From NCBI RefSeq assembly GCF_016595415.1, contig NZ_JAENIO010000014.1, forward strand, positions 1-64,000: 64,000 bases of DNA. The letters are read 5' to 3'. A program made the translations under genes and the position numbers. Under the pieces are notes generated by a model. It saw only the letters and a list, made by a program, of their open reading frames with translations. It did not search any database and was not told the DNA's origin. Below, in pieces: positions 19,393 to 53,136 of this stretch (positions within the stretch are counted from its first letter, which is position 1; every line of letters begins with the position of its first letter). The stretch is from Roseibacillus ishigakijimensis. GTDB lineage: Bacteria > Verrucomicrobiota > Verrucomicrobiia > Verrucomicrobiales > Akkermansiaceae.

Positions 19393-20409
19393 ATGAAAAC
19401 CACAACCCCAAGCAAAACCATGACCCCCCTGCGCAAGACCGCCATTTGTCTTTCGGCCATCGGTTGCGCCCTCGCTACCGCAGTCGAAGGGGCCAGCCTG
19501 TCTCAAGCCGCCCCCTACAACGTGTTCACCTTTGGAGACCTCACCCTCACCAACGTAGATTCCGAAGGCCGGGTCGCGGTGGGAGGCCAGGCCAATCTCA
19601 CCAATTTCGGCATCGGAAGCACCTTCCAGGGCCGTGCGGCCAGCGCGGGAGACTCCCTCATCGTGGCCGGCAATCTCAACTATCGAGGTGGTGAGGTCCA
19701 CTATGGAAATGCCTACTACGGCGGCAACCTCATCAGCGCTCCAGCCATCCCCAATGGCACTCTCAATCAAGGCAACCCTCTGGACTTTGCCAGCGCGCAA
19801 TCCCACCTCACCCGGTCCTCCACCTACTGGTCAGGGCTCACCGCCAATGGGGCCACCAACGACAACTATGGCGGCATCAATCTCATCGGCACCGATCCGG
19901 ACCTCAACATTTTCGAGGTCTCCGGCCAAATGCTCTCCTCCGCGTGGGGAGTGACCATCGATGCGCCCGCCGGTTCCACCGTTCTGGTCAATGTTAATGG
20001 CGCCGACAATCAGTTCAAGAATCTCGGCATCAGCTTCTCCGACATCAATGGCGACAACACCGGCACGACCAACCGGGAACACGTGCTCTACAATTTCTTC
20101 GAAAGCTCCACCCTGCGCATCGAGTCCATCAGTGTGCAAGGCAGTCTGCTGGCCCCCCATGCCGATGTTGCCTTCAATAACGGCAATCTGGAAGGCAACC
20201 TCATCGCAAACACCGTGACCGGAACCGGGGAGGCCCACGACTACCTCTTCGAAGGCACCTTGCCAGAGGAGACCCCCGTCTTGCCACCCATCAGCGGGCG
20301 CTCCCTGCCTTTCCCGGGCGAGGGTGAGAGCGCGGTTCCCGAGCCCTCCACCGCCCTCTTGAGCGCTCTCTTCGGCTCACTCGCGCTCCTGAACCGGCGC
20401 CGTTCCTGA
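19393..20409 (+). CDS. Choice-of-anchor A family protein with PEP-CTERM sorting signal
   Basis: 338 residues. A signal peptide (residues about 13-35) is followed by a choice-of-anchor A domain: YNVFTFGDLTLTNVDSEGRV, then repeated strands with SLIVAGNLNYRGG and a late LLAPHADVAFNNGNLEGNL segment. The last 25 residues are a classical PEP-CTERM tail: VPEPSTA, a hydrophobic helix (LLSALFGSLALL) and a basic end (NRRRS). In the family such proteins are exported, then cleaved and anchored or released by an exosortase (EpsH/XrtA type), which is not in this window. Role probably in extracellular matrix or surface. An upstream sigma-70-like promoter is possible; a weak hairpin follows the stop. Confidence 0.92.
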   Translation: MKTTTPSKTMTPLRKTAICLSAIGCALATAVEGASLSQAAPYNVFTFGDLTLTNVDSEGRVAVGGQANLTNFGIGSTFQGRAASAGDSLIVAGNLNYRGGEVHYGNAYYGGNLISAPAIPNGTLNQGNPLDFASAQSHLTRSSTYWSGLTANGATNDNYGGINLIGTDPDLNIFEVSGQMLSSAWGVTIDAPAGSTVLVNVNGADNQFKNLGISFSDINGDNTGTTNREHVLYNFFESSTLRIESISVQGSLLAPHADVAFNNGNLEGNLIANTVTGTGEAHDYLFEGTLPEETPVLPPISGRSLPFPGEGESAVPEPSTALLSALFGSLALLNRRRS

Positions 20410-45447: not shown

Positions 45448-48400
45448 ATGAGAGTATTCCTAATTGCCGCTAGCTACCTAACAAGCCTGGTGAGCGCCGT
45501 TGCAGAGAAGCCCAACGTCATCGTCCTCATCTCCGACGATGCCGGATATGCGGACTGGGGATTTATGGATGACTACCTGCAGACCCTCAATCCCGGACAG
45601 GCACCGTCGCCCGTCCCCACGCCCAATCTGGACGCCTTGCGGGCCCGGGGAGTGCTCTGCACCAATGCCTACACCGCTCCAGTGTGCTCCCCCTCGCGCG
45701 CGGCCATCGTGACTGGCTCCTACCAGAATCGCATCGGCTACGAGTTCAACATCAACAATTTGACCAGCCCCACCGCGCAAGACGGACTGGTTCCGGAGGC
45801 GGTCACCATCTTTGACCGGATGAAGGAGGCGGGCTACACCACGGGAGCGATTGGCAAATGGCACCTGGGTGCCCGCGACGATTCCGCCGGACTCGGCAAC
45901 CGACCCGAATACAAGGGAGTGGATGAATTCCATGGAATCTGGCGCGGCTCCCGGAACTACGAAGTCGGAGCCGAGACGGTGACCCGGGCCCTGCGTTCCA
46001 CCATTCGCGAGCCCTTCTCGGACACGGTCTTGGAAACCTCCGCCCCGTGGAATGTGGATGCGAATCCCTCTTCCTCCGCCCGTCCGGACCTCAACGCCTA
46101 CATCACCAATGGCTTTGGGGAAGGAGCACTCCAGTTCATCGACCGCCACTACGAGGATGAGGACCCCTTCTTTCTCTACGTAGCCTTCACCGCGCCCCAC
46201 TCGCCCATTGGGGCCTCGCCGGATATCGACGATCCGCGCTTGGCCGGGCTCAGCGGCACCCGCAAGAACTACGCTTCCATGGTGCTCACCATGGATAAGG
46301 AAATCGGCCTTCTCATGGATAAAATCGCGGATCCGGCCGGGGATGGCTCCGTGGACTTGAGCGAGGAAACCTACTTCATCTTCATCAACGACAACGGGGG
46401 AGCCTCGGGAATCGGCACGGTCAATACTCCCTTGAATGGCTGGAAGGGCTCGGTCTACGAGGGCGGCACCCGGGTGCCCTTCCTGATGGCCGGTCCGGGA
46501 ATTCCCGCCCAGTCGACCTTTCACCATCCCATCCATTCCATCGACATTCTGCCCACCTGCCTGGGGGCGGCCGAGGCTCCTTTGCCCGGAGGCATGGACG
46601 GAGTGAATCTGCTGCCCTACTTCCGGGGCGAGCGCACCTCCGCTCCTCATGAGACGATCACCATTCGCTCCGGGGAAAAGGCCAGTCTCCGGCACGGCGA
46701 TTGGAAACTCGTCAAGGCCAGTGCGAGCTCCAACTTCGCCCTCTACAACCTTGCCCATGACATCAGAGAGGCCAACAACCTCATCAATGAGGAGCCCGAA
46801 ATCGCCTCCTCCTTGATCAGACACCTCACCGCCTTCGAGGCAAAGAACGACAAACCGCGCCATGCCGGCTTGAGCGACGAACCCGATTCCATCAACCTCA
46901 ATGATCGTTTCGTGTTTGCCCCCCAACCCAGCAACGACCTCATCTTCACCTCCGAAGAGACCTTAGTGGGAGGCAGCCTGCGCAATGGCGACTTCAATGC
47001 CAGCAGCGGTCTCAGTACGAAAAGCTTCGAAGACACGCCGGAGTGGTTCAATGCCGAGAGCACCAGTCAGACCACCGTCGCCACGCGAACGGATCTCACC
47101 TTCGACGGCTCCCGCAATGCGGTCATCGCGGAGAGCCCGGGCCGGGGCTTTGGCCTCGACACCGGCCACACCCTGGAGGGAGGAGAGAACTTCCGGGTCC
47201 AATATGTGTGGGCGGATGCCTCCAACTGGAGTGACAACCTGGACCGCATCCGGGTCTCCCTCTTCACCACCTCCGACGACACCGCGACGGGCGAACGAAC
47301 CCTGATTCAAGGCCTGGATTCCCAGCTCTCCCGCAGCAACAGCGATTATCAGGAAGAGAGCGCCCTTTTTTCCCCCATTCCTGCTTCCGCAGCCGGGAAG
47401 CGCCTCTTCGTGCTCATCGACTCCGCGCAACTGGGTTCCGGCTTTGCCCGACTGGATAATTTCGTGCTCGAGCGCGGCTCGGTGGAGGCCGACCTTACCG
47501 AAGCGACCACTCTCTGGAACAAACCAGGTGCCTGGATGGATCCGGACACCAATGCTCCCGACACGCTCCTGACCAGCGACTTCTTTGCCAACTGCGTTCT
47601 CGACTTTCCCGCCCGGGAATCCTTCTCCTATGCAGCCCAGAACAATCTCACCCGTCTCACCGGGCTTCCTGCCATGGTCAACCGCATCGATTTGTCGGGT
47701 GAGTTTGCGGGCGACACGCCGCAATCCTTGCGTGTGAACGGAGCCCCCCTCTTTCTCGTCAACGACCTCACCAATCAGCCCCCCACCATCGGGCTGACGA
47801 CCACCGGGGCCGACTTCGAGGCCCGCCTGGAACTGCCCCTCGAAGTCTATGGCGACCTCTTGATCACCGGTGATGGCGACGCGCAATTCACTTTGGCGGG
47901 AGCCGTCACCGAGTTCGAACCTCTGAGGGGTCTGCGCAAGGAAGGCTCGGCCACCCTCACTGTGGAGACGGCCCCACAATTGACCGGCACCACCACCCTG
48001 GCGGGCGGCACCCTCCTCGTGGCCGACGGAGTGAACTGGGAGCATTCCAAGATTCACGTGGAAGAAGGAGCCACTCTCGGCGGCGGCGGGACCATCAGCA
48101 GTGCCCTTTCTGGCAACGGGACCCTTTCGCCAGGCGCATCCATCGGGACTCTGACCGTGGCCAACGATCTCGCTCCGGGGCGCTTGTTGCTGGAAGTTGA
48201 CGGGGCGGATAGCGACCTCCTGCAAGTCACAGGCACCCTCGACCTCGCTCAAAGCAAACTCGTCCTGAGCGACTTGGGCCAAGGATTCACCGAAGCCGCC
48301 TACCCCCTGATCGCCTACGGCTCCCTTTCTGGAGAATTCCAATCCGTGGAAGGCCTGCCAGCAGGTTATGAGCTGAACTACGCCTACCAAACCGCGAACG

Positions 48401-48834
48401 ACGCTCCGGTCGTCGCTCTGGTCGCGGTGAGCAATTCACCCTACGAAACTTGGATCCAGGAAGCGGGGGTCAGCGAGGCCCTCGCCGACTTCTCCGCCGA
48501 TGCCAGCGGTGACGGAGTGCCCAATGGCATCGCATTCTTCCTCGGTGCCCCCCACCCCTTCACTCCTCTGACCGACTTTCTCCCCCTGGTCGACCGGGAA
48601 AACGAGGGAGGGCGCCTCATTTACCGCTATCGTAAGGCCCAGCCACTGCCGGAAATCGTGCAACACAGCTCCGACCTCCTCAGCTGGCATGAAGCCGTGG
48701 CCGGTGAAAATGGAGTGAGCCGGGAAGTTTCGCCCGACCACTACGGCCCGGACATTGACGAAATCCGCTTCTTCTTTCCCGAAACTCTGATCGAAGACGA
48801 ACCCCTCTTTCTCCGCCTGCAGGTCACTCCTTGA
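45448..48834 (+). CDS. Giant secreted sulfatase fused to autotransporter-type beta repeats
   Basis: 1,128 residues. Signal peptide to about residue 20, then a complete type I sulfatase domain (residues 22-490): SDDAGYAD, the formylglycine motif CSPSR with Cys80, GKWHLG, and the DNGG segment. Next are a carbohydrate-binding-like beta region (about 520-690), then Gly/Thr-rich beta repeats (about 800-960) such as LTGTTTLAGGTLLVADG and GNGTLSPGASIGTLTV, which match autotransporter-associated PATR-type strands. The last 130 residues are a module with SGDGVPNGIAFFLG, YRYRKAQ, HSSDLLSWHEA and FLRLQV. The fusion suggests a surface-displayed enzyme acting on sulfated polysaccharides. No sulfatase-maturating enzyme is in the window. 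A terminator follows. Confidence 0.92.
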   Translation: MRVFLIAASYLTSLVSAVAEKPNVIVLISDDAGYADWGFMDDYLQTLNPGQAPSPVPTPNLDALRARGVLCTNAYTAPVCSPSRAAIVTGSYQNRIGYEFNINNLTSPTAQDGLVPEAVTIFDRMKEAGYTTGAIGKWHLGARDDSAGLGNRPEYKGVDEFHGIWRGSRNYEVGAETVTRALRSTIREPFSDTVLETSAPWNVDANPSSSARPDLNAYITNGFGEGALQFIDRHYEDEDPFFLYVAFTAPHSPIGASPDIDDPRLAGLSGTRKNYASMVLTMDKEIGLLMDKIADPAGDGSVDLSEETYFIFINDNGGASGIGTVNTPLNGWKGSVYEGGTRVPFLMAGPGIPAQSTFHHPIHSIDILPTCLGAAEAPLPGGMDGVNLLPYFRGERTSAPHETITIRSGEKASLRHGDWKLVKASASSNFALYNLAHDIREANNLINEEPEIASSLIRHLTAFEAKNDKPRHAGLSDEPDSINLNDRFVFAPQPSNDLIFTSEETLVGGSLRNGDFNASSGLSTKSFEDTPEWFNAESTSQTTVATRTDLTFDGSRNAVIAESPGRGFGLDTGHTLEGGENFRVQYVWADASNWSDNLDRIRVSLFTTSDDTATGERTLIQGLDSQLSRSNSDYQEESALFSPIPASAAGKRLFVLIDSAQLGSGFARLDNFVLERGSVEADLTEATTLWNKPGAWMDPDTNAPDTLLTSDFFANCVLDFPARESFSYAAQNNLTRLTGLPAMVNRIDLSGEFAGDTPQSLRVNGAPLFLVNDLTNQPPTIGLTTTGADFEARLELPLEVYGDLLITGDGDAQFTLAGAVTEFEPLRGLRKEGSATLTVETAPQLTGTTTLAGGTLLVADGVNWEHSKIHVEEGATLGGGGTISSALSGNGTLSPGASIGTLTVANDLAPGRLLLEVDGADSDLLQVTGTLDLAQSKLVLSDLGQGFTEAAYPLIAYGSLSGEFQSVEGLPAGYELNYAYQTANDAPVVALVAVSNSPYETWIQEAGVSEALADFSADASGDGVPNGIAFFLGAPHPFTPLTDFLPLVDRENEGGRLIYRYRKAQPLPEIVQHSSDLLSWHEAVAGENGVSREVSPDHYGPDIDEIRFFFPETLIEDEPLFLRLQVTP

Positions 48835-48945: not shown

Positions 48946-49824
48946 TCACTTCTTGCGGCGGGCCAGCGCGAAAGGCAGGGCCCCCATGAGCAGAAGAACA
49001 CTGGAAGGCTCGGGAACAACCGTTGCGGTCAAAGTTCCTCCCTCATAGAGCATTTCGATGCTCTGCCCGGCATCCAACCCGCTGGCGGTGACCGTGGAAA
49101 ACTCGCCCACATAAGTCGTGATGCCATTGATCAGCTCAAAACTGCTGCCCAGGCTGGGAGCAGTGGCGAAATTCAAATCGATCCCAGATCCCCCGCCCAG
49201 CAAGAGAACGAGAGATTGCCCGGTCAAGCTGAAGTGCTGGAAAGAAGCGTCGAAGTCAAAGGACACGGTGCCATTCTGCACCATCAATTCATCCTGGGTG
49301 TTGCCCACATGAACGGTGGTCGCCCCAAAAGAGAGCGTGCCCCCATTAACGGAAATGGCCTTGGAGGCTTGGAAATTCGCTCCCGAAGCGAAACTCACCG
49401 AGCCCCCTCCTTCCACGAACAAATCCGCCCCCACCCCAGCCAAGTCCAGCGTGCCCCCGCTGCCGATGAGAAGAGAGCCGCCATCCACGATGACATCGCC
49501 ATAGCCTCTTGAGCTTGAACCACTGCTTCCGGCCCGCAGCTGGAGCTCGTGCGAACCCACGGTGAGGCTGCCATTGATGGTCATGTAGAAACGCCGCCCG
49601 GTCTCGGTCTGATAGTCGGCGGACATGATCACATTGGCTCCAGCCGGAATGATCCCTTCGTCATCATCCCCGGCAGCAGCCACGGTATCAGGGAGACCAT
49701 TGTCCCAATTGCCCGCGTCGTTGAAGTCCGAACTGGTTGTGCTGACAAAGGTCGTCGCCGCAGGTAGCGAAAGCGATCCCGCAGTGAACAAAGCCAGTCC
49801 GATGAGTGTGTGTGTTTGTTTCAT
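48946..49824 (-). CDS. PEP-CTERM surface protein
   Basis: 292 residues. Signal peptide (THTLIGLALFTAGSLSLPAA), then a beta-helix-like region of repeated GG-rich strands (VDGGSLLIGSGGTLDLAG, VEGGGSVSFASGANFQAS). The end is a standard PEP-CTERM signal: VPEPSSVLLLMGALPFALARRKK, motif, helix and basic residues. Residues about 110-265 align well with the N-terminal region of the next gene on the same strand (for example FSLTGQSLVLLLGGGSGI against FTFTGQSLQVELGLGSTL), so the two are paralogous in part. An exosortase is needed for processing but is not in the window. Confidence 0.9.
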   Translation of the reverse strand: MKQTHTLIGLALFTAGSLSLPAATTFVSTTSSDFNDAGNWDNGLPDTVAAAGDDDEGIIPAGANVIMSADYQTETGRRFYMTINGSLTVGSHELQLRAGSSGSSSRGYGDVIVDGGSLLIGSGGTLDLAGVGADLFVEGGGSVSFASGANFQASKAISVNGGTLSFGATTVHVGNTQDELMVQNGTVSFDFDASFQHFSLTGQSLVLLLGGGSGIDLNFATAPSLGSSFELINGITTYVGEFSTVTASGLDAGQSIEMLYEGGTLTATVVPEPSSVLLLMGALPFALARRKK

Positions 49825-49962
49825 CTAATTATTGGATTTGGTTGCTCATCCCCTCATCGCCCGGGTGACTCTGGAAAGCATAATTCACAAAACCACCCAA
49901 TTGAAACCCGAAACGATAGGGGATAATGAGCGAGAAAATAGCAGAAAACGTTCCATCTCTCT

Positions 49963-49996
49963 CAAAATAAAAAGGCCGCCCGGCGAGGGCGGCCTT
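49963..49996 (-). terminator. Intrinsic terminator of the ASH-protein gene
   Basis: A perfect 10-bp inverted repeat (49972-49981 and 49987-49996) with a 5-nt loop, followed on the minus strand by TTTTTATTTT. It lies 39 bp beyond the stop codon at 50035. Confidence 0.92.
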
Positions 49997-50034
49997 GGTC
50001 CAAAAGGATTAAAACTTTCTAATTATGAATGGTC

Positions 50035-53000
50035 TTAGAAAACCTGAACCGAAAGGCGGACGAAGAGTGAGCCTTCGACGGCCAAGGAAGCAGGCAGGTA
50101 GTATTCCACCAAATCGACACCGCTTTCCACGCCATCGACGGTTTCGACCACGACCACTCCGGCGTTCCCGTCAACCGCGGTGTCCCAGCCTGAAAGATCG
50201 GAACCATACTGCACCGCTATGGAGGTGCGGGCATCGCCACCAGCAGCAGACGAGCGGGGGAAGCGATAGACGAAATAATCACCCATCTCCTCATCGCCAT
50301 CGGGATCCGCTGAGGTCATCAGCGCGGTGGGCAATTTATCAAGGTCCGAGCTTTCCGTATCCGCAACAGCACCACCGACAACCCATTCCAGCCCATTCGG
50401 CAGGGAATCGCCATCGGCATCCTCCTCAATGGCTCCCGTGGTCGCAGGATCCAGCCCCGCCGCACTTGCAAAAGCAAGGTAAGCAGAGGGAACGTCATCA
50501 GGCACCGCCGAACCGGAGAGGAGAAGGCTACTGATATAAGCTGAATTCAAATTGGCATTCTCAGTGATACGCAGCTCGTAGGTTTTTCCGCTCTCCACGT
50601 CAAAGACATCGCCAAGCTTCCCGGTGCGCAGAACTGGCCCGACGTAAATCGGAGCCTCCTCGCTGCCAACCTCGCCGAAGGTGACTTCCAAGGGCACCCC
50701 AAAAGAGGTTCCGCTCATATTGAAGTGACTGTAGAAGGCAAGTTCACCAGTCTGCTGACCACTGATGAGAACACTGATGTAATTGCCCGCACTTCCATTA
50801 TAAGTGGTTTCCGCCCCATCAATTGACAAATCATCCCCGCCTTCCGCATCGGTGCCAGCAACAAGGTCACCATCGCGGGACTGGATAGCCAAGCTGATGC
50901 CACTCCCATTCGTGGTCGCGCCTTCGGAGACCACGAAAGGACGGTAGCCTTCCGCCACGGGGGAATCCGCCGTTCCGAAGTCAAAGCCCACGCTATTCCC
51001 CGACGCCATCATAAAACCGGTCATGGGAATGGTCAGAGAGCCTTCCTCCCCATCGAGGGTCAAAATGAGGTCATCCTCGTAGAATCCGCTATAGAAGGGG
51101 AAAAAGGCGACCTCCACCACTCCAGAAGCCCCGGGAGCCAAGGGCTCGGGGAAGGAAACAATTTCAAAATCGTTTTCATCAAAAGCGTAAGAATTCGTCT
51201 CATCAAATACGAGATTGCCCACCGCTCCATTGTTGGTCACCGGGACCGAGCCAATCACGCGCGCGTCATCGGAATAGGCAATCGCTCCAAAATCGAAGGA
51301 GCCCACCGACGAAAGCTGGGGACCGGCCACATTGATAGTGATGGAAACCACCCGGGGCGACGGTTGGGAGAGGTCGTTGGAGGCAATCTCCATCTCGAAG
51401 GTGTGAGCCCCGCTGCGAGTGGGGGTGAAGTCGAAGTTCACCACCTCCCGCACGCCTGCTGCGATCGTGGTCGGAAAGACCAGATTGGAAACAAGGCCGG
51501 CATCAGCACCGCTCACCGTCACCCCGGAAAGAGCCAATGGGGTGGTCTCATCGCCAGCAGCGTTTTCAACGATGATCGAGAACGTCTGACTCGCGGAGTT
51601 CTGGGCCAGGGTCACGGCCTCCGTCGCTTCCAACTGCGGGCTGTAATTGGCAACCGTGGCCTGCAAGCCCACCCGAACCACCGCACTGGGATAGGCCGTC
51701 GTGTTCAATTCCAAGGCTCCAATGAAATCTCCCGTTTCCGTCCCGGCGTCGAAGTAGACCTCGATTTCAGCGCTTTCTCCCGGTGCAATGGCCTCCGGCA
51801 TCTCACCAAAGGAAAAGCCGCTGCGGTTTTGGAGAATCACCGAATCAGAAACCCCCTCCTCATCGGCGGGAAATTCCAACGCATCATTTTCTCCATTGTT
51901 AGTAACCGTCAGAGTGTAGGTTTGAATCCCCGAACCAGGCACCACCTCACCGAAATTAATCAGGTCGGTATTGGTCGTCCCGACAGCCCCAAGCAACTGG
52001 AGTTCCACCGGCACCGCATCAAGCAGCACCTCACCTTCGCCATAAATCTCGAGGGCAAAATGATGCCGGGCAGAGGCCACGGAAGGCGTGAAATCGAAGG
52101 TGATATCCGCGCTTCCCCCCACCGGAATGCTATCCGGGTAAGAAAGATTGCTCACGTCGGCGGCATCGCCGCCCGTGATCTGGAGATCAGAAATGGCAAT
52201 GGCTGAGCTCGTGCCCCCATTAGCCACCGTCACGGTGTAGGACTGGGTTTCAGCCTGCAAAAGTTCACGCACAAATAGCGGGGCAATCAAATCATTGGCC
52301 GGAGCAGTCTCGGCGACAATGGTCGCCTGCAAAGCATTCGCGCCGTAAACGACCTCAACAGCGGTTCCTTCCGCCAAACCATTGGCCACGACCTGGCCAA
52401 AAGTGCCGTCGCCCGAACGACCGGTGACGCCGACAAATCCGCTCACTCCCGTAATGAGGTCAAAGGTGGTCCCCAACTCGGGAGGACTATCGAAAGTCAG
52501 CTCCAGAGTGGAACCCAATCCCAATTCCACCTGCAAAGACTGTCCGGTGAAGGTGAAGTTGTCGAAACCCCCTTCGTCGTTCTTGCTGATTTCGAAGGCC
52601 AAGGTCGCCTTATCGATGACCAGCTCATCCTGAAAATTGCCATCCGCAATCGCTCCCGACCCCATGGTGACGGAGCCATGATGGACCTCCAAAGTTTTGC
52701 TGATCTGAAAAGTCGAACCGGATTCGAAGACGAGATGACCTTCCCCGTAGTTGGTTCCGACAAAAACGTCCGCCCCGGTTCCAGCCACATCAAGTCGCCC
52801 TCCTTCTTCCACAATCAAGCGCCCGACCGTACCAAATCCATTCGCGATGTGAAGGTCCGTGCCGTTGTTTCCAGAACGATGCTGCAACTCGAAACTGCCG
52901 GTTCGCAGCTCAGCATTAAGATAAAGGTGATAACCAATTCCCGTTGCGGTGTTGTAGTTGCCTGACATCTCGGCGTCTCGCATCAAGAATCCGTTGTTCC

Positions 53001-53136
53001 CGGTAAAGAGAAGGCCTCGAGACCAGTTTGCGGCGTTGTTGAATTCATCGTCAACGAAGCCGAAAAAGTAGGAACGCGCCGACATTTGGCCCACTGCCGC
53101 TAGCAGAAGGGCTGAAATTAGAGCAGTTTTTTTCAT
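50035..53136 (-). CDS. Large secreted ASH/choice-of-anchor D protein
   Basis: 1,033 residues from the ATG at 53136, which starts a signal peptide (MKKTALISALLLAAVGQMSA). Residues about 25-270 are a beta-helix-like domain related to that of the PEP-CTERM protein next to it. Then come at least three Ig-like ASH (choice-of-anchor D) repeats with the pattern FxxxxPxxxGxxxxTxTVTNNGxxxxxF (for example FGEVVPGSGIQTYTLTVTN and FDFGAIAYSDDARVIGSVPV). A further beta domain (about 730-890) is followed by a C-terminal module with DADGDSLPNGLEWVVG, DYFVYRFPRS, GSDLSGW and FVRLSV. Likely a surface or matrix scaffold protein. No PEP-CTERM or other known sorting signal. Confidence 0.88.
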   Translation of the reverse strand: MKKTALISALLLAAVGQMSARSYFFGFVDDEFNNAANWSRGLLFTGNNGFLMRDAEMSGNYNTATGIGYHLYLNAELRTGSFELQHRSGNNGTDLHIANGFGTVGRLIVEEGGRLDVAGTGADVFVGTNYGEGHLVFESGSTFQISKTLEVHHGSVTMGSGAIADGNFQDELVIDKATLAFEISKNDEGGFDNFTFTGQSLQVELGLGSTLELTFDSPPELGTTFDLITGVSGFVGVTGRSGDGTFGQVVANGLAEGTAVEVVYGANALQATIVAETAPANDLIAPLFVRELLQAETQSYTVTVANGGTSSAIAISDLQITGGDAADVSNLSYPDSIPVGGSADITFDFTPSVASARHHFALEIYGEGEVLLDAVPVELQLLGAVGTTNTDLINFGEVVPGSGIQTYTLTVTNNGENDALEFPADEEGVSDSVILQNRSGFSFGEMPEAIAPGESAEIEVYFDAGTETGDFIGALELNTTAYPSAVVRVGLQATVANYSPQLEATEAVTLAQNSASQTFSIIVENAAGDETTPLALSGVTVSGADAGLVSNLVFPTTIAAGVREVVNFDFTPTRSGAHTFEMEIASNDLSQPSPRVVSITINVAGPQLSSVGSFDFGAIAYSDDARVIGSVPVTNNGAVGNLVFDETNSYAFDENDFEIVSFPEPLAPGASGVVEVAFFPFYSGFYEDDLILTLDGEEGSLTIPMTGFMMASGNSVGFDFGTADSPVAEGYRPFVVSEGATTNGSGISLAIQSRDGDLVAGTDAEGGDDLSIDGAETTYNGSAGNYISVLISGQQTGELAFYSHFNMSGTSFGVPLEVTFGEVGSEEAPIYVGPVLRTGKLGDVFDVESGKTYELRITENANLNSAYISSLLLSGSAVPDDVPSAYLAFASAAGLDPATTGAIEEDADGDSLPNGLEWVVGGAVADTESSDLDKLPTALMTSADPDGDEEMGDYFVYRFPRSSAAGGDARTSIAVQYGSDLSGWDTAVDGNAGVVVVETVDGVESGVDLVEYYLPASLAVEGSLFVRLSVQVF

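What the first reader, a model, noticed from the sequence alone, without database searches (positions are those of the whole stretch)
48946..53136. Adjacent paralogues with different tails: PEP-CTERM versus ASH repeats
The 292-residue PEP-CTERM protein and the N-terminal 250 residues of the 1,033-residue protein align along their length (for example LDLAGVGADLFV with LDVAGTGADVFV, and FSLTGQSLVLLL with FTFTGQSLQVEL). One carries an exosortase signal, the other a run of ASH domains and the shared C-terminal module. This looks like domain swapping after duplication, giving two ways of placing the same domain outside the cell.
Basis: partly seen in the sequence, partly recalled or inferred. Interest (0 to 1): 0.6.

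Follow-up and report, generated by a model that had tools for sequence, protein, structure and literature searches.

The report
Same surface domain, two alternative tails
Two neighbouring genes of a Verrucomicrobiota bacterium carry the same secreted beta-helix domain, one ending in a known sorting tag and the other in a binding cassette closed by a C-terminal domain that the family databases do not name and that is found across the phylum; tail swapping itself is a known pattern, but that C-terminal domain looks undescribed.

Summary
The two N-terminal domains align over their whole length (36-41% identity, E = 5e-45; score 411 against at most 105 in shuffles). The predicted fold is a beta-helix with the cap seen at the C-terminal end of autotransporter passengers (Z 16). 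One copy ends in PEP-CTERM, with an exosortase in the genome. The other ends in choice-of-anchor D/ASH repeats, a CBM/malectin-like domain and a C-terminal module.

Modules are exchanged: relatives in several genera carry either tail, the ASH-CBM-tail cassette occurs behind three different N-terminal regions, and the CBM domain also occurs alone with PEP-CTERM. But the window pair is not a local duplication: a sister relation of the two genes is rejected (AU p = 0.026, small tree).

Same domain with different sorting tails is a known phenomenon. What looks new is the shared C-terminal module: 46 copies in this genome, at the extreme C-terminus of unrelated large, mostly secreted proteins, present in 56 of 79 genomes across the phylum, absent from Pfam and NCBIfam apart from its TSP3-like loop, and enriched where exosortase occurs (confounded). 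Its role as a sorting or anchoring domain is inferred.

The parts
48946..49824 (-). short paralogue, 292 aa: signal peptide, beta-helix domain, PEP-CTERM
49018..49758 (-). N-terminal beta-helix plus cap domain of the short protein (residues 23-269)
   Evidence: AlphaFold2 mean pLDDT 85.4, pTM 0.82; passenger/autochaperone-like fold Z up to 16.0, rmsd 2.7 over 192 residues
48949..49017 (-). PEP-CTERM sorting signal VPEPSSVLLLMGALPFALARRKK
   Evidence: TIGR02595 20.6 bits, cut-off 16; predicted C-terminal helix
50035..53136 (-). long paralogue, 1,033 aa
52282..53079 (-). homologous N-terminal domain of the long protein
51013..52278 (-). choice-of-anchor D / ASH (HYDIN-like Ig) repeats
   Evidence: NF012200 88.5 bits, 4 stretches; PF22544 60.9 bits
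50503..51000 (-). CBM/malectin-like beta-sandwich domain, unnamed in Pfam and NCBIfam
   Evidence: fold matches CBM35/CBM22/malectin-like domains (Foldseek E 2.8e-5; Z up to 13.5)
50038..50493 (-). C-terminal module: DxDGDGxxNxxE loop plus beta-rich region ending FxRLxV
48436..48831 (+). second copy of the C-terminal module, at the end of the convergent sulfatase gene (45448-48834)
49972..49996 (-). intrinsic-terminator-like hairpin between the two genes (10 pairs, 8 G-C, then T-rich), suggesting separate transcription units
   Evidence: the number of such sites in the region is at the shuffle mean; this one is the strongest

Best explanation
Both genes encode Sec-exported surface proteins with the same N-terminal domain, a short right-handed beta-helix with the capping sandwich known from the C-terminal end of autotransporter passengers, here without any translocator barrel. 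The domain belongs to a patchily distributed family in which what follows it is exchangeable. In the short protein the domain is joined to PEP-CTERM, so the genome's exosortase should cut the tail and hand the protein over to the surface or exopolysaccharide matrix. In the long protein it is joined to a cassette of ASH/choice-of-anchor D repeats (spacer), a CBM/malectin-like domain (probable glycan binding) and a C-terminal module. This module sits at the C-terminus of dozens of unrelated large, mostly secreted proteins in the same genome, so it most likely acts as a general tail for secretion to, or retention at, the cell surface, as an alternative to PEP-CTERM. Shown: homology, predicted folds, tail types, module exchange, terminal position, presence of an exosortase. 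Inferred: localisation, processing, glycan binding, function of the module.
For: Homology and even identity along the domain. Fold. Relatives with PEP-CTERM in G092, G086, G014, G012, G051 and a Phycisphaerae MAG; with ASH-CBM-tail in Luteolibacter marinus. More distant relatives with Ig/LamG/TSP3 and an FYRV-type end. The ASH-CBM-tail cassette behind three different N-terminal regions, and the CBM domain alone with PEP-CTERM in G012 contig 9 (250 aa). Domain-wise identities disagree with a single history: tail of the window's long protein 50-54% to cassettes with other N-terminal regions but 28% to the L. marinus protein with the same N-domain. One exosortase (107.6 bits, cut-off 25.7) and 58 PEP-CTERM matches over the cut-off in the genome. 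C-terminal module: all 30 loci examined in this genome and 24 of 25 loci from the phylum-wide search carry it at the C-terminal end, the matches of the latter ending 0-9 residues before the stop, on a sulfatase, a glycosyl-hydrolase core, a glucose/sorbosone dehydrogenase, an M12 peptidase, LamG, PATR, RCC1 and Ig proteins.
Against: No localisation or processing data. The module could be a terminal folding cap or a ligand-binding domain with no sorting role. Its own structure is only modestly predicted (pLDDT about 60 in the sandwich, below 50 in the loop region). The N-domain tree has ten leaves and moderate supports. Signal peptides were judged by eye and a simple hydrophobicity rule only.
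Confidence: 0.6

Rival explanations
1. Local tandem duplication of one ancestral gene in this lineage, after which one copy had its tail replaced.
For: The genes are adjacent on the same strand, and the tandem pair was found in no other genome searched.
Against: Sister relation of the two window copies rejected, AU p = 0.026; the short gene's domain is 45-49% identical to the L. marinus long protein against 36-41% to its neighbour.
Confidence: 0.15
2. Two old paralogous lineages (one PEP-CTERM, one ASH-type) that never exchanged tails with each other; the apparent mixing is tree error.
For: A clade of the two long N-domains is not rejected (AU p = 0.19).
Against: The cassette occurs with unrelated N-terminal regions, and the CBM domain alone with PEP-CTERM, so modules do exchange in this family; the best tree places the L. 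marinus long protein with the window's short one.
Confidence: 0.25
3. The C-terminal module is not a sorting tail but a structural cap or glycan-binding sandwich placed last in large multidomain proteins.
For: The region after the TSP3-like loop is predicted as mostly beta; terminal strand caps are common; calcium-binding loops stabilise such ends (general knowledge).
Against: It is terminal in nearly every case examined and attached to catalytic and non-catalytic proteins of unrelated fold, the usual signature of a sorting domain; its number per genome follows exosortase presence, though that is confounded.
Confidence: 0.4

Closest known systems
PEP-CTERM/exosortase (EpsH) sorting system (Haft et al. 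2006, PMC1569441)
   Same: short protein has the tripartite tail; the genome has an exosortase and 58 PEP-CTERM matches over the cut-off, this one included
   Different: nothing unusual; only the partner domain is unnamed
Families with interchangeable C-terminal tails: vault-like proteins with GlyGly-CTERM, LPXTG or PEP-CTERM (PMC3237569, section on homologues with other functional tails); NCBI 'choice-of-anchor' families
   Same: one homologous domain, different C-terminal sorting tails in different proteins; the ASH region here is itself choice-of-anchor D
   Different: here both forms lie side by side in one genome, and one tail is a large module not in the databases instead of a short motif
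Type V autotransporter passengers; NCBIfam TIGR04393 'T5SS/PEP-CTERM-associated repeat'
   Same: beta-helix with autochaperone-like cap (EspC, pertactin, EspP; Z about 15-16)
   Different: no C-terminal translocator barrel in either protein
Type IX secretion C-terminal domains of Bacteroidota
   Same: a C-terminal beta-rich domain on many unrelated large secreted proteins (comparison from general knowledge)
   Different: no match of the module to any T9SS C-terminal model in NCBIfam at E up to 1; different phylum; T9SS machinery not searched for

Membership tests
PEP-CTERM protein (short) | C-terminal PEP motif, hydrophobic helix, basic cluster | tested here: met
   TIGR02595 20.6 bits over cut-off 16; Pfam PF07589 15.9 bits, under its cut-off of 20.7; C-terminal helix 275-290 in the model
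PEP-CTERM protein (short) | exosortase encoded in the same genome | tested here: met
   PF09721 107.6 bits at G000:C181:97862-98644
PEP-CTERM protein (short) | cleavage and surface delivery by exosortase | not testable with these tools
   needs experiment
choice-of-anchor D (long) | NF012200 domain over its cut-off | tested here: met
   88.5 bits, cut-off 45, 4 stretches
Type Va autotransporter | beta-helical passenger fold | tested here: met
   Z up to 16.0 with passenger ends, for the short protein's domain; the long protein's domain was not folded alone
Type Va autotransporter | C-terminal translocator beta-barrel | tested here: not met
   no autotransporter barrel family in either protein; the C-termini are PEP-CTERM and the module
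Type IX secretion cargo (module) | T9SS type A/B sorting domain | tested here: not met
   no T9SS C-terminal model among NCBIfam matches at E up to 1 for 22 + 6 tail sequences; fold comparison of the module inconclusive because of low confidence
Type IX secretion cargo (module) | T9SS machinery (SprA, PorV etc.) in the genome | not tested
Bacterial TSP3 repeat (PF18884) | DxDGDGxxNxxE calcium-binding loop | tested here: met
   7 of 22 tails match PF18884; this covers only the first part of the module

The most novel reading that the evidence does not exclude
The C-terminal module (TSP3-like loop plus beta-rich region ending FxRLxV) is the recognition or attachment domain of an undescribed surface-sorting route of Verrucomicrobiota, parallel to exosortase/PEP-CTERM, used mainly for large proteins, and tail exchange lets the same domain be sent along either route.
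Probability: 0.25. Interest if true: 0.75.

Novelty: new variant of a known kind. Interest (0 to 1): 0.5.

Why it matters
How Verrucomicrobiota place their very large secreted enzymes and adhesins on the cell is largely unknown (general knowledge). A C-terminal domain that recurs tens of times in one genome, is terminal in nearly every case examined, sits on unrelated cargo, and is interchangeable with PEP-CTERM is a concrete handle on that question. It is present in a genus that is probably Akkermansia, so it could be tested there, and the adjacent pair is a natural matched comparison of the two tails on one domain.

Tried and rejected
Low-complexity or compositional match: rejected by windowed shuffles and the sulfatase control. 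Recent local duplication: disfavoured by the AU test. Spread by phage or plasmid: no match to the short protein in the phage or plasmid collections. First tree runs failed for a thread setting and were repeated. Two alignment calls failed on frame errors. Profile search of the PDB with the module listed EF-hand loops only, such as calmodulin. The fold list for the CBM-plus-tail model tested essentially the CBM part only. Pfam/NCBIfam scans gave no name for the N-domain, the CBM-like domain or the sandwich part of the module; a weak match of 4 tails to Amuc_1099_fam (best 1.6e-5) lay, in the one case looked at, over the DxDGDG loop region and far under its cut-off. Literature searches found no description of such a tail in Verrucomicrobiota; most subscription papers are not covered.
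Full report
Observation. Their N-terminal parts align from the signal peptide to the point where the tails begin: 36% identity over 301 columns, E = 5e-45; 41% by genome search, with no third copy in the genome. With signal peptides and tail removed the score is 411; the best of 500 global shuffles is 95, the best of 500 shuffles within 12-residue windows 105, and the beta-strand region of the neighbouring sulfatase scores 68. Identity is even along the domain.

What the domain is. AlphaFold2 with an alignment of ten sequences gives a confident model of the short protein (mean pLDDT 85.4, pTM 0.82): a short beta-helix closed by a cap, then a C-terminal helix (the PEP-CTERM segment). A structural second look places residues 30-273 on the C-terminal end of autotransporter passengers: EspC Z 16.0 (2.7 A, 192 residues), pertactin 15.6, Ssp 15.6, EspP 15.1, IcsA autochaperone 9.6. 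Foldseek alone ranks the same group first, but weakly (best E 9e-3). Neither protein has an autotransporter barrel. The domain has no name in Pfam or NCBIfam. A shared fold shows no function. The long protein's N-domain was used in the alignment but not folded alone.

Tails. The short protein ends in VPEPSSVLLLMGALPFALARRKK, TIGR02595 over cut-off. The genome has one exosortase and 58 PEP-CTERM matches over cut-off, nearly all in open frames of about 150-470 codons. The long protein continues with choice-of-anchor D/ASH repeats, a CBM/malectin-like sandwich (Foldseek E 2.8e-5 to CBM35; Z 13.5 to YxiM, about 12 to malectin-like plant ectodomains, about 10-11 to CBM22/CBM35) and the C-terminal module also found on the convergent sulfatase. 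A strong terminator-like hairpin lies between the genes, so they are probably transcribed apart.

Which tails occur with the domain elsewhere. In 195 genomes of the family, close relatives are few and scattered. Five other genomes of the family have the short PEP-CTERM form (G092, G086, G014, G012, G051), and so does a Phycisphaerae MAG of another phylum. One genome, identified by its contig as Luteolibacter marinus NBU1238, has a long form: same N-domain, ASH repeats, CBM-like domain, module. More distant relatives in the family and in a neighbouring family carry Ig, LamG and TSP3 domains and an FYRV-type end (these domains named by eye). In the other direction, the CBM-like domain was found in six genomes of 260: behind the ASH repeats with the same N-domain (window, L. 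marinus), with a different N-terminal region that looks like another carbohydrate-binding-type sandwich (L. marinus second copy, G031), with another beta-strand-rich N-terminal region (G092, G047), and alone with PEP-CTERM in a 250-aa frame of G012. So two of the long protein's domains each occur elsewhere as single-domain PEP-CTERM proteins. Domain-wise identities also conflict: the window's long-protein tail is 50-54% identical to tails of cassettes with other N-terminal regions but 28% to the L. marinus protein with the same N-domain, while the CBM-like domain is 45-49% identical to all.

History. In a ten-leaf maximum-likelihood tree of N-domains the window's short protein groups with the L. 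marinus long protein (SH-aLRT 93, UFBoot 90). Forcing the two window genes together is rejected (AU p = 0.026); forcing the two long proteins together is not (p = 0.19). So the pair is probably not a recent local duplicate; whether a tail was replaced, and in which direction, stays open. The sample is small.

The C-terminal module. A profile from three tails finds 39 matches at E up to 1 in the genome. All 30 of the loci examined carry it at the end of the open frame and nearly all end in FxRLxV-like residues close to the stop, including the weak matches that were not selected for this. With a profile of 22 tails the genome has 46 matches at E up to 1e-3, and 56 of 79 genomes drawn across the phylum have at least one. 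Of 25 loci from the other genomes of that search, 24 have the match ending 0-9 residues before the stop; one is internal. Carriers in this genome are mostly large (open frames of 324-1,964 codons for the best matches) and functionally unrelated: sulfatases, a glycosyl-hydrolase core, a glucose/sorbosone dehydrogenase, an M12 peptidase, PA, LamG, PATR, RCC1 and Ig proteins. Most of the 20 extracted have a signal-peptide-like N-terminus by inspection; a crude rule flags about half. Pfam and NCBIfam recognise only the TSP3-like loop in some. The sandwich part is predicted with modest confidence only, so its fold is not settled.

Link to exosortase. Two or more modules occur in 39 of 50 exosortase-positive and 1 of 29 exosortase-negative genomes (Fisher p = 2e-11); the difference holds for genomes of 2.2-4.4 Mb (medians 5 and 0) and when genomes are collapsed by family (p = 5e-4). 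This is a correlation: relatedness is only partly controlled, and a rich secretome could drive both. One genome (G480) has six modules without a detected exosortase, so exosortase may not be strictly required.

Known or new. One domain with interchangeable C-terminal sorting tails has been described: vault-like proteins with GlyGly-CTERM, LPXTG or PEP-CTERM tails, the last in Verrucomicrobium spinosum (PMC3237569), and NCBI's choice-of-anchor families by name. PEP-CTERM itself was first noticed in V. spinosum (PMC1569441), and A. muciniphila is reported to have 23 such proteins and an EpsH-like gene (PMC4960237). The pair is therefore a new example of a known kind. The module is, as far as the databases and open papers searched here show, undescribed, and I rate it as the more interesting part. 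That it sorts or anchors proteins is inferred from position, cargo diversity and exchange with PEP-CTERM, not shown.

Noticed in passing
window 45448-48834 (+): Sulfatase with a long C-terminal extension: beta-strand region with a weak PATR match, then the same C-terminal module as the 1,033-aa protein; convergent with the pair.
   Followed up: partly
window 19393-20409 (+): Another PEP-CTERM protein (TIGR02595 match at 20335-20403, 20.9 bits).
   Followed up: no
L055 (6001-6801): A Phycisphaerae MAG (other phylum) encodes a 319-aa PEP-CTERM relative of the short protein, 36% identical: possible transfer between phyla or misbinning.
   Followed up: no
L131 (1389-2027, -): Free-standing CBM-like domain with signal peptide and PEP-CTERM (G012 contig 9), an independent case of the same tail exchange.
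   Followed up: partly
   Followed up: partly
L061, L062, L063 (Acidobacteriota and relatives), L056 (Bacteroidetes MAG): The DFNxxxNWxxGxP opening of the N-domain recurs in unrelated secreted proteins of other phyla with other C-terminal ends; similarity is confined to part of the domain.
   Followed up: no
L155: The one cross-phylum match to the C-terminal module that is internal: the frame runs at least 500 residues further to the locus end.
   Followed up: no
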